From an uncultured Treponema sp. (GTDB lineage: Bacteria > Spirochaetota > Spirochaetia > Treponematales > Treponemataceae), in contig CAMWIU010000010.1 of the NCBI GenBank assembly GCA_947174385.1, forward strand, positions 1 to 32,012: DNA of 32,012 nt, written 5' to 3'. Both the position numbers and the translations under genes were made by a program. Below are positions 12,117 to 15,913 of this stretch, in pieces. A model generated the notes under the pieces. The model searched no databases. It saw only the letters and a program-made list of their open reading frames with translations, and was not told where the DNA came from. The stretch's first letter is position 1; every line of letters starts with the position of its first letter.

Positions 12117-12449
12117 CTATTTTTCGGATTTTAGGTCGTCAACAATTCGCTGCGCCATGAGTTCGAATTTCGGATTTATAAAATTCATTATGCGCGCGGA
12201 AACTGCGTTCGCAATCCGCGTCTCGCTGCTTGTTCCTCCGAAAAGTTCGGCTGGCTCCACTTTCAGCGCGGCAGCAATTTTTGCGATAAGCGGCGCACTC
12301 ACAAACTGCGTTCCTGTTTCGATAACGGAAAGATGCTTTTGCGTAACGTCGAGCATTTCCGCGAGCTGCGTTTGCGTGAGATTCCGGCTTTTTCTGAGCC
12401 TCCGCAAATTCTCGCCGAAAAGTTTCGGAATGTCGATGAGTGCTTCCAT
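12117..12449 (-). CDS. XRE-family (Cro/CI-type HTH) transcriptional regulator
   Basis: FGENLRRLRKSRNLTQTQLAEMLDVTQKHLSVIETGTQFVSAPLIAKIAAALKVEPAELF HTH_3 pattern; start chosen at MEALIDIPK. Confidence 0.9.
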   Translation of the reverse strand: MEALIDIPKLFGENLRRLRKSRNLTQTQLAEMLDVTQKHLSVIETGTQFVSAPLIAKIAAALKVEPAELFGGTSSETRIANAVSARIMNFINPKFELMAQRIVDDLKSEK

Positions 12450-12492
12450 ATTGAAAATTATGACATCGGAAAGCGAAAAAGAAAACATTCCG

Positions 12493-12584
12493 TTATGGAA
12501 TAAATATACTTGTGAATATGTAAAACTGTTGACTTTTTGCGAGATTTCAAATAGAATAGGATTTGTAAGGTATATTTATACTTT
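12493..12584 (+). repeat. 92-bp promoter-bearing repeat, copy 1
   Basis: 91/92 identical to 14998-15089 (single A/G difference at 12558 vs 15063). Contains TTGACT 12529-12534, 17 nt, TAGAAT 12552-12557; flanking IR ATAAATATAC 12500-12509/GTATATTTAT 12570-12579. Confidence 0.95.
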
Positions 12585-12614
12585 GCGAAACATGATTTTT
12601 TTAAGGAGGAAATT

Positions 12615-13649
12615 ATGAAGCGAGTTGCGCTGGGTTTAGCAATGTTTTGCTTGATTTTTTGTACACGAGCATTCGCAGAAATAAAATACATAGAGATAAA
12701 AGATGTTTCGAATGTTTCTGAAATTGAATTTTCAAATTTAAGCGACTTTGAAAAATTTGCCGTGGGCGACATTTTCTTTTGCAAAAAGACTTCGAAATCC
12801 TATGTACTTGTCGGCGGCACTTATTATTCCTACAATTTGCAAGGCTATAAAACTGTGGCGGATTTTAAAGCTGGAAGCAACTACAAAAATGCGATTGATT
12901 ATTATGAATCCGTCGAGCAAAAAATCCCAGACGCGGAACGTTTTTATTTTTACAAGTCAAATCATTTTGCGAACGGTGCTGACGCTTTGGATGCATGGGC
13001 GAACGGTTGGGGCGAGAAATTTGAGCGTGCCAATTATGCTAGATTTGAAGATGAAGAAATTTATCTTGGCTCGCCGATTTCCAATTTGTATTATTCTGCC
13101 AAACAATATGGAATCAACACTTTATCGGAATGCGTTGAACTTCTTTTTTTGCAAAAGCATGAATTCGAATCAATGGAAATTTACAGAATCGCAAAGTCCA
13201 AAGGATTTAAAGAAAATTCGGATTATCAAAGCGCAATCGCAAAAGGCTTTGAAACAAAAGAAGTTTGGGACGCTGCTAGAAAATTGAATCTTGCAAATGC
13301 CAGTGAATATCAAAATTATATTGCGTTTGTCGCAGAAATCGGAAATAAAATTGACGAAAAAGATTTTACGAAAGAAGCCGCAGTGGTTTATCATTATATT
13401 GCTAAAGTTTCAAAAGATAATTATTCGCTCGAAAAACTGATTGAAAATTGCAATAGTCAAATGAAAAATGAGAATGCGAATGTAAAACTTGCGATAGAAA
13501 AATATGTCGAAAAAAAAGTTGATTATTACAAAAACAGTTTTGAAAAAATGGAAAATTATTTGAGTAATTCGCTTGTTTTGAGAATCATAGAGAATTCAAA
13601 GGAACTCGGAAAATACAATGAAAAGAATGATGTGTTCAACAAGAAATAA
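12615..13649 (+). CDS. Secreted protein of unknown function
   Basis: AAGGAGG RBS; signal peptide MKRVALGLAMFCLIFCTRAFA; no family recognised; AT-rich. Confidence 0.75.
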   Translation: MKRVALGLAMFCLIFCTRAFAEIKYIEIKDVSNVSEIEFSNLSDFEKFAVGDIFFCKKTSKSYVLVGGTYYSYNLQGYKTVADFKAGSNYKNAIDYYESVEQKIPDAERFYFYKSNHFANGADALDAWANGWGEKFERANYARFEDEEIYLGSPISNLYYSAKQYGINTLSECVELLFLQKHEFESMEIYRIAKSKGFKENSDYQSAIAKGFETKEVWDAARKLNLANASEYQNYIAFVAEIGNKIDEKDFTKEAAVVYHYIAKVSKDNYSLEKLIENCNSQMKNENANVKLAIEKYVEKKVDYYKNSFEKMENYLSNSLVLRIIENSKELGKYNEKNDVFNKK

Positions 13650-13707
13650 AAATTGCGCTGAAAATTTTTGGCGAAATTTTTAACAAGAAATATAAATTGA
13701 AATGAAA

Positions 13708-13731
13708 AAAGCCTCGTAAAAACGAGGCTTT
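13708..13731. terminator. Bidirectional intrinsic terminator between convergent genes
   Basis: AAAGCCTCG-taaaaa-CGAGGCTTT with A tract on the left and T-rich sequence on the right. Confidence 0.85.
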
Positions 13732-13770
13732 AAAATTTTTTGCGCTGTAGTTAGAATTTTGAATCTGAAA

Positions 13771-14772
13771 TTAGCCAAGCAATTCTTTCAAAGCATTTAT
13801 GGCGGCTTCTTTTTTTGCCTCTTTTTTTGTGGTTCGCTTGCCACAAAAATACTTGTCGAAAGATTCTAAATCAATTTTGCAAATCCAAAAATGCTCATTT
13901 GTTTCTTCATCAAATCCTTCTTCCCAAATGTATTTCGGCTCGTCAATCCAATTGTGTTGATATAATTCTTGAAGTTGACTGACTGGGTTTTCGTGATTTA
14001 TTTTGTCTACTATACGATTTTTCATATATTCACGTTCGAATGCTTCGCATGCTTTTTTTGCGGCTTCCATTTTGGCTTCAAACGCGGTATTTCCCGTAGA
14101 TTTAAATTTAAGAGGTGGATATGGGCATAGGGAGCGGTGAAGGGTCAATGTGCAAGTATAAGTAACACCACCAAGATACATGAGTGTTAAAAAAGAATCA
14201 TCGGAAAGGATATATGGACTTTTATGGCAATAATCTTGAAGACGCCGAATATAATTTTCCGCATATTTTCCAGCACCCAGCATTGTGGTGCACACGGGAA
14301 AAATTTTTTCAAAATTCCAATTTGAATCAATGGCGACCGCGCCAAGAATTGCTTCAAACAAATCCTCTGCCACCGTCGCTTTGTTCCGAACTTCGTTGCT
14401 TTCGTCGCTTTTGCCCAAACGCAAGTAGGATTCAAGACCAAGATTCCAAATGCATTTTGACAGCATTTCAGTATCAGAATAATATGAAAACAATTTTGAA
14501 AGTTCGCCTTCATTCTTTTGCGAAAAATAATATTTTTGCACTAGAGAATAAGATTGCCTTTGTTCTTTTGCAAAAGATTGCTCAAACCATTTTGTCAAAT
14601 AAATTGACAAAACCTTGTCCCCATAAAATTCCAATACTTCATTGTCAGCACATTCGGAATGCTCGTTCGCGTAAGAACGTCGAGTGAACGCTTGTTCAAG
14701 AAGTTTTTGGTTGCTGAAAGAATATCCAATTTTGGATTGAATATCCTCGCCATTGAAATTTTTGTTTTCCAT
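13771..14772 (-). CDS. RNase III-family protein with catalytic domain and two dsRBD-like domains
   Basis: DNEVLEFYGDKVLS (E45, E48, D52) and ATVAEDLFEAILGAV (D137, E140) keep canonical RNase III acidic residues; C-terminal dsRBD PVSQLQELYQ...GKRTTKKEAKKEAAINALKEL; middle segment ending KSTGNTAFEAKMEAAKKACEAF resembles a second dsRBD. Confidence 0.88.
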   Translation of the reverse strand: MENKNFNGEDIQSKIGYSFSNQKLLEQAFTRRSYANEHSECADNEVLEFYGDKVLSIYLTKWFEQSFAKEQRQSYSLVQKYYFSQKNEGELSKLFSYYSDTEMLSKCIWNLGLESYLRLGKSDESNEVRNKATVAEDLFEAILGAVAIDSNWNFEKIFPVCTTMLGAGKYAENYIRRLQDYCHKSPYILSDDSFLTLMYLGGVTYTCTLTLHRSLCPYPPLKFKSTGNTAFEAKMEAAKKACEAFEREYMKNRIVDKINHENPVSQLQELYQHNWIDEPKYIWEEGFDEETNEHFWICKIDLESFDKYFCGKRTTKKEAKKEAAINALKELLG

Positions 14773-14997
14773 AAAGTCCTCCTAAAGTTTTTAAGAGGCA
14801 CAATCATCGTGCGCAATCGAGAAGATTTTTTGGCGGATGATTAACAAAATAGAAAAATTAAAAATCAATATCGTAGAAAACCACAGCGCAATAATCAACG
14901 ATAATAAAAGTTAATCAAAATATTTTGTCTTTCGTGCCTTTTTTTCAGCATAATATAATTTTGTGTTTCTGTCAAGAAGTTTTGTTATGATATTTTC

Positions 14998-15089
14998 TTA
15001 TGGAATAAATATACTTGTGAATATGTAAAACTGTTGACTTTTTGCGAGATTTCAAATAGAATGGGATTTGTAAGGTATATTTATACTTT
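14998..15089 (+). repeat. 92-bp promoter-bearing repeat, copy 2
   Basis: See copy 1 (12493-12584); -35 at 15034-15039, -10 at 15057-15062. Confidence 0.95.
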
Positions 15090-15124: not shown

Positions 15125-15913
15125 ATGAAAAAATTTATTTTCACAATCATTGCACTTGCGATGCTTTTTACAAGCTGCGAAACTTTGTCGAATTTATTTG
15201 GCGGAAATTTTTTCAATTCGAATTCGGAAAATGAAAGCGGCGGTCAAAAAGTTACGCCTATTTCAAAGTCGGTTTCAAAACAAAATCCCGCGATTCGGGA
15301 CACTGCGAATTGGGATATTGAATCGCTTGATACGGCGCGGAATGTGGATTATCTTTCCGAAATTGAAAAGGACGTGATTTTGGAAATGAACAAGGCGCGC
15401 AGCGATCCTAAAAAATATGCGGAACTTTACATTGCGCCGTTCGCCAAAAAATTCCGAAGCGATGGAACTTATATGAAAAATGGCGTGATCATGCAGACGA
15501 ACGAAGGCGTTGCTGTGGTGAACGAATGCATCAAGGAAATGTCGGCAAAAAAAGCCATGGGAATTTTGAAGCCCGAAAAAGGTCTCTCGCTTGCCGCGCA
15601 AAGTCACGCCACAAGTCAAGCGAAGACAAATCAAACTGGGCACAAAGGAACGGACGGAAGCACGCCTTTCACGCGAATTCAAAAGTACGGCTCTTTCCGC
15701 ACTGCTGGCGAAAACATTTCTTATGGAAGCAAAGATGGGCAAGAAATTGTGATTCAGTTGCTGGTTGATGACGGCGTAAAAAATCGCGGACACAGAAAGA
15801 ACATTTTCAATTCGGCGTTTACTCAAACTGGCGTTGGTTATGCCGAAGGACATAAGGTCTACAAAACAGAATGCGTGATAACTTACGCCGGCGGATACGA
15901 GGAAAAAAAGTGA
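15125..15913 (+). CDS. CAP/SCP-domain (cysteine-rich secretory protein family) lipoprotein
   Basis: Lipobox LFTSC; EMNKARSDPKKYAELYI, LSLAAQSHATSQAKTNQTGHKGTDGSTPFTRIQKYG, AGENISYG, GHRKNIFNSAFTQTGVGYAEG typical of CAP domains. Confidence 0.9.
   Translation: MKKFIFTIIALAMLFTSCETLSNLFGGNFFNSNSENESGGQKVTPISKSVSKQNPAIRDTANWDIESLDTARNVDYLSEIEKDVILEMNKARSDPKKYAELYIAPFAKKFRSDGTYMKNGVIMQTNEGVAVVNECIKEMSAKKAMGILKPEKGLSLAAQSHATSQAKTNQTGHKGTDGSTPFTRIQKYGSFRTAGENISYGSKDGQEIVIQLLVDDGVKNRGHRKNIFNSAFTQTGVGYAEGHKVYKTECVITYAGGYEEKK

What the first reader, a model, noticed from the sequence alone, without database searches (positions are those of the whole stretch)
12493..15089. 92-bp promoter cassette duplicated 2,505 bp apart at 91/92 identity
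Seen in sequence: 12493-12584 and 14998-15089 differ at one position. Each carries TTGACT-N17-TAGAAT and a 10-bp inverted repeat (ATAAATATAC/GTATATTTAT) bracketing the promoter. Identity begins and ends sharply, and each copy sits ~30-35 bp upstream of an exported-protein gene. This level of identity in non-coding DNA suggests recent duplication, a mobile promoter element, or gene conversion.
Basis: partly seen in the sequence, partly recalled or inferred. Interest (0 to 1): 0.75.

Follow-up and report, generated by a model that had tools for sequence, protein, structure and literature searches.

The report
Duplicated repressor-controlled promoter in Treponema
The repeated 92-base stretch is most likely not a mobile element but the control region of a neighbouring DNA-binding regulator (two binding sites around a promoter), present twice so that two exported-protein genes probably answer to the same switch.

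Summary
In detail: 12493-12584 and 14998-15089 are 91/92 identical, with TTGACT-N17-TAGAAT and the stated arms. The mobile or invertible promoter reading is not supported: only two copies exist in this genome, one in a single sister genome among the 200 same-genus genomes searched, and none in the viral, phage or plasmid collections.

Each inverted-repeat arm is itself a dyad (GTATA-TT-TATAC; left arm one mismatch). Copy 1's left arm lies 52 bp from the start of a divergent XRE (HTH_3) gene, exactly where relatives carry GTAATA-WW-TATTAC. In 21 of 27 non-redundant relatives a second half-site follows at 52-55 or 62-65 nt (shuffles 0.5). So the cassette is most likely the operator-promoter-operator control region of that regulator, placed before two members of an XRE/exported-protein/CAP-lipoprotein neighbourhood.

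The 92 bp are identical in sister genome G050 although dS of nearby genes is about 0.15-0.36, so near-identity reflects constraint (or conversion), not proven recency. G050 has XRE-cassette-CAP only: the 2,505 bp between the repeats were deleted there or inserted here; which is unresolved. Regulation is inferred, not shown.

The parts
12117..12446 (-). XRE / HTH_3 regulator gene (109 aa; an upstream in-frame ATG at 12488 would give 123 aa)
   Evidence: Pfam HTH_3 E 4.9e-13; 99% identical in G050; homologs at E<=1e-12 in 72 of 196 same-genus genomes
12493..12584 (+). cassette copy 1, between divergent XRE and the 344-aa exported protein
12498..12509 (.). putative operator O1 (copy 1), GAATAAATATAC; 52 bp upstream of the XRE start
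   Evidence: same offset as GTAATAWWTATTAC / GTAATAWWTATAC upstream of XRE in relatives
12529..12557 (+). sigma70-like promoter TTGACT-N17-TAGAAT (copy 1)
   Evidence: 10 of 12 consensus matches; no transcript data
12503..12532 (-). weak divergent promoter-like site TCAACA-N18-TATATT overlapping O1, possible XRE promoter
   Evidence: 9 of 12 consensus matches, a level common by chance
12570..12581 (.). putative operator O2 (copy 1), perfect dyad GTATATTTATAC just downstream of the -10
   Evidence: exact pattern GTATAWWTATAC occurs 3 times in the genome: the two cassettes and one site at C30 that lies inside a coding sequence next to flagellar genes
12615..13649 (+). 344-aa protein with N-terminal signal-like sequence, no Pfam or NCBIfam match (S344)
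   Evidence: ORF; homologs in 27 of 196 same-genus genomes, several next to CAP and/or XRE
13708..13731 (.). bidirectional terminator-like hairpin between S344 and the RNase III-like gene
   Evidence: 10-bp stem with T tail
13771..14772 (-). second RNase III-like gene with a dsRNA-binding domain, antisense between the copies; absent from G050 and L145 at this place
   Evidence: Pfam PF14622 2.1e-18 and PF00035 5.1e-10; another RNase III gene on C37
14998..15089 (+). cassette copy 2, upstream of the CAP lipoprotein
15003..15014 (.). putative operator O1 (copy 2)
   Evidence: same sequence as copy 1
15034..15062 (+). sigma70-like promoter (copy 2)
   Evidence: 10 of 12 consensus matches
15075..15086 (.). 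putative operator O2 (copy 2), GTATATTTATAC
15125..15913 (+). CAP-domain lipoprotein gene (262 aa)
   Evidence: Pfam CAP 1.7e-13; signal ending FTSC; directly behind the cassette in G050

Best explanation
The 92-bp unit is a regulated control region belonging to the adjacent divergent XRE regulator: operator O1, then a sigma70 promoter, then operator O2. An XRE dimer binds O1 (over the regulator's own upstream region, probably autoregulation) and O2 (about +6 to +18 from the inferred start), probably repressing the exported-protein gene by blocking initiation or early elongation. Occupation of both sites may be cooperative. A second copy in front of the CAP lipoprotein gene puts that gene under the same control and makes copy 2 a divergent promoter for the RNase III-like gene as well. 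Shown: sequence, conservation, conserved operator positions, gene neighbourhood, the single-copy arrangement in a sister genome. Inferred: XRE binding, sign of regulation, TSS, autoregulation, cooperativity.
For: Both arms are dyads. GTAATAWWTATTAC is present exactly within 300 bp upstream of XRE in 9 of 28 relatives versus 0.0 in shuffles, and with at most 2 mismatches in 19 versus 0.75. Its offset of about 52-55 bp from the XRE start in many relatives equals that of the left arm here. A second half-site lies 52-55 or 62-65 nt further on in 21 of 27 non-redundant loci, shuffle mean 0.47, maximum 4. XRE, S344 and CAP are neighbours in several distant species. CAP promoters of relatives L098, L099, L101, L106 and L107 carry TATTAC[CT] at -42 to -48, next to the likely -10. 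Zero differences over 92 bp between species with dS 0.15-0.36 in nearby genes implies function. The dyad is otherwise almost absent from the genome.
Against: No binding or transcript data. The G000/G050 dyad (GTATA halves) is a shortened variant of the genus consensus, so the match is by position and partial sequence. The first-to-second site distance here is 72 bp, outside the 54 and 64 classes and not exactly one more helical turn. The right half of the operator is fully symmetric only here; in relatives the second site was scored as a half-site. The CAP half-site evidence is from inspection of 22 loci, without its own shuffle test, and also occurs in loci where no XRE was seen nearby (L100, L101).
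Confidence: 0.8

Rival explanations
1. Mobile promoter or MITE-like element that inserted twice.
For: Compact, nearly identical, boundaries fairly sharp, short terminal inverted repeats.
Against: Two copies only in 2.3 Mb, both here; one copy, at the orthologous place, in one other genome of 200; no target-site duplication; no match in IMG/VR (exact 36-mer), phages or plasmids; arms explained as operators.
Confidence: 0.04
2. Invertible (phase-variable) promoter flipped by a recombinase at the arms.
For: Promoter bracketed by inverted repeats ahead of surface or exported proteins.
Against: All three copies (two here, one in G050) have the same orientation; arms are only 10-12 bp and are individually palindromic; no recombinase recognised in the ORF list; the operator positions are conserved in relatives whose sequence between them differs.
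Confidence: 0.03
3. Direct repeats as recombination or integration sites: a 2.5-kb module (S344 plus RNase III-like gene) entered this genome by recombination at the cassette, creating the second copy (insertion model of the history).
For: G050 has one cassette with copy 1's left flank and the CAP gene of copy 2's right flank; spacer GC 0.345 versus 0.465 for the window; outgroup L145 has Tex next to CAP with no XRE, cassette, S344 or RNase III gene.
Against: S344 next to XRE is an old arrangement in distant species, so a deletion between the repeats in G050 explains the data with S344 ancestral; S344 is AT-rich in most relatives as well.
Confidence: 0.4
4. Assembly artefact: the two-copy arrangement is a misjoin of strains at a 92-bp repeat in a metagenome-assembled genome.
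For: G000 is a 180-contig, 87% complete assembly; a single-copy relative exists.
Against: XRE-cassette-S344 is supported by the same adjacency in distant species and cassette-CAP by G050; the copies differ by one base; unique sequence at the RNase III/copy 2 junction would have to be created.
Confidence: 0.05

Closest known systems
XRE/Cro-C1 family autoregulators with paired dyad operators in a divergent control region (general class, e.g. lambda CI/Cro, SinR; from general knowledge)
   Same: HTH_3 protein, divergent gene pair, two dyad sites around a promoter
   Different: Controls exported and CAP-domain proteins in Treponema; the control region is found in two copies at one locus
C (controller) proteins of restriction-modification systems, e.g. 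C.AhdI (PDB 1y7y) and C.Kpn2I (PMC6237814)
   Same: Best solved relatives of the XRE by sequence are C.AhdI (E 6.7e-07) and C.BclI; C.Kpn2I shows that such a protein can bind upstream of a promoter and also block elongation from a downstream site (abstract)
   Different: No restriction-modification genes recognised next to it; targets are exported proteins
Invertons (recombinase-flipped promoters, e.g. PMC11892184)
   Same: Promoter between inverted repeats near surface proteins
   Different: Arms are operators, orientation fixed in three copies, no recombinase recognised

Membership tests
XRE-regulated control region | Adjacent HTH_3 regulator gene | tested here: met
   HTH_3 E 4.9e-13
XRE-regulated control region | Dyad operator conserved upstream of orthologous regulators | tested here: met
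   9 of 28 exact, 19 of 28 within 2 mismatches, shuffles 0.0 and 0.75
XRE-regulated control region | Second operator at conserved spacing | tested here: met
   21 of 27 at 52-55 or 62-65 nt, shuffle mean 0.47; this locus itself is at 72
XRE-regulated control region | The protein binds the sites and changes transcription | not testable with these tools
   needs EMSA, footprint, mutant RNA-seq
MITE / mobile promoter | Dispersed copies in the genome or relatives | tested here: not met
   2 copies at one locus; 1 orthologous copy in 1 other genome of 200
MITE / mobile promoter | Target-site duplication | tested here: not met
   flanks of both copies read by eye
Inverton | Both orientations seen | tested here: inconclusive
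   three copies, one orientation; no read data
Inverton | Site-specific recombinase nearby | tested here: inconclusive
   none recognised by reading the ORF list; only part of the window was scanned with HMMs
Restriction-modification controller | Adjacent methylase and endonuclease genes | tested here: not met
   neighbours are Tex, S344, RNase III-like, CAP, MscS

The most novel reading that the evidence does not exclude
Treponema has a genus-wide XRE regulon of exported proteins whose O1-promoter-O2 unit is copied as a block to bring a displaced gene (CAP, cut off from its regulator by an inserted RNase III-like gene) back under control, and then recombines to delete or swap the gene in between, making the cassette a driver of exported-gene turnover.
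Probability: 0.2. Interest if true: 0.5.

Novelty: new member of a known kind. Interest (0 to 1): 0.38.

Why it matters
It replaces a mobile-promoter guess with a testable regulator and operator pair conserved across many Treponema species and linked to exported and CAP-domain proteins that have no known control. It also shows that near-identity of non-coding repeats need not mean recent duplication: here the same 92 bp is unchanged between species with clear synonymous divergence.

Tried and rejected
Mobile element: own genome, 200 same-genus genomes, IMG/VR, phages and plasmids searched, nothing dispersed. Third genomic dyad (C30) was checked as a further regulon member and rejected: it lies inside a coding sequence next to flagellin and FlaG-like genes. 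The 13-bp relatives' form GTAWWAWWTATAC has no match in this genome. Genus-wide scan for GGTAATAWWTATTACC: sites are rare, 0-2 per genome, many at XRE; two perfect sites elsewhere (L221, L222) lie inside a gene for another protein, so no larger regulon was shown. Other genomes' XRE/CAP loci do not show a duplicated promoter. Low GC of the spacer as proof of foreign origin was rejected because S344 is AT-rich relative to its locus in most relatives too. Strict helical phasing was tested: two classes about 10 bp apart, but the 72 bp here is not exactly in phase. Literature searches on Treponema CAP or XRE control gave no papers.

Full report
Observation. The two 92-bp stretches are present as stated and differ only at 12558 (A) and 15063 (G). 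They carry TTGACT-N17-TAGAAT, 10 of 12 consensus positions, and lie 30 and 35 bp before the start codons of a 344-aa exported protein of no known family (S344) and a CAP-domain lipoprotein. There are no further copies in the 2.3-Mb assembly.

Distribution. Of 200 same-genus genomes searched (G000 included), only G050 has the 92-mer, once, identical to copy 1. IMG/VR (an exact 36-base stretch), phages and plasmids have none. No target-site duplication is seen. This speaks against a mobile promoter.

Sister genome. G050 (MAG Mgla_MAG_20-bin_15) reads XRE - cassette - CAP: copy 1's left flank and copy 2's downstream gene, without S344 and the RNase III-like gene. The difference is exactly the 2,505-bp repeat-to-repeat unit. 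That is what recombination between direct repeats would leave; an insertion in this genome gives the same picture. S344 beside XRE is an old arrangement, which favours deletion. The nearest outgroup L145 lacks XRE, cassette, S344 and the RNase III-like gene altogether between Tex and CAP, which favours a gain of at least the XRE part in the G000/G050 line. I put deletion in G050 at about 0.6 and insertion here at about 0.4.

Age. At unconstrained rates about 14 changes would be expected in 92 bp (my arithmetic). So identity within G000 is no clock: selection, or conversion, holds the sequence. Leaders just downstream still align between the copies but have diverged (22 of 30), which suits a duplication older than the 91/92 figure suggests.

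What the arms are. Each arm is a dyad: GTATA-TT-TATAC at 12570-12581, and GAATA-AA-TATAC at 12498-12509. The gene on the left is an HTH_3 regulator. In relatives whose regulator is only 42-63% identical, the control region carries GTAATA-WW-TATTAC or GTAATA-WW-TATAC, in many of them 52-55 bp before the regulator's start; the left arm here is at 52. Exact 14-mers occur in 9 of 28 relatives (shuffles 0.0) and with up to 2 mismatches in 19 (0.75). A second half-site TATTAC or TATAC follows, at or just after the -10, at 52-55 or 62-65 nt in 21 of 27 non-redundant loci (shuffle mean 0.47, maximum 4). Here the distance is 72. The two classes are one helical turn apart; 72 is close to, but not exactly, another turn, so looping is only a suggestion. 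The site is rare genome-wide.

Regulon. The gene divergent from XRE begins like an exported protein or lipoprotein in most relatives examined (by eye). S344, CAP and XRE share a neighbourhood in L098, L099, L104, L109-L113. CAP promoters in L098, L099, L101, L106 and L107 have TATTAC[CT] at -42 to -48. So CAP and S344 probably belonged to one local regulon before the duplication seen here.

Mechanism. Most likely XRE represses from O2 (overlapping the first transcribed bases) and autoregulates from O1. C.Kpn2I, a protein of the same broad class, does both kinds of thing: it binds upstream of one promoter and blocks elongation from another site (PMC6237814, abstract). Binding, sign and cooperativity are inferred.

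Caveats. G000 is a fragmented MAG; no reads were available. Signal peptides were judged by eye. Relatedness among the 27 loci is reduced, not removed. Organism name: the records nearest to it are Treponema sp. MAGs.

Noticed in passing
L097 7055, 8860, 9159; L096 4153, 5026, 8987, 10110: CAP genes of two other species are flanked by dispersed 27-57 bp repeats about 1-2 kb apart, reminiscent of a gene-cassette (integron-like) array; the repeat type was not tested.
   Followed up: no
window 13771-14772 (-): A second RNase III-like gene with a dsRNA-binding domain beside another RNase III gene on contig C37; relatives in 47 of 196 same-genus genomes, at varying places.
   Followed up: partly
L145 5400-5836: A remnant of a CAP gene 3' end (ECVITYAGGYSEKN) lies just upstream of the CAP gene, a trace of tandem CAP duplication.
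   Followed up: no
window 12615-13649 (+): S344 is a fast-evolving exported family (about 25-40% identity between species) without any Pfam or NCBIfam match, AT-rich relative to its surroundings in most species.
   Followed up: partly
L221, L222 around 1146-1164: Perfect GGTAATATTTATTACC inside the coding region of a lipoprotein-like gene in two genomes, away from XRE.
   Followed up: no
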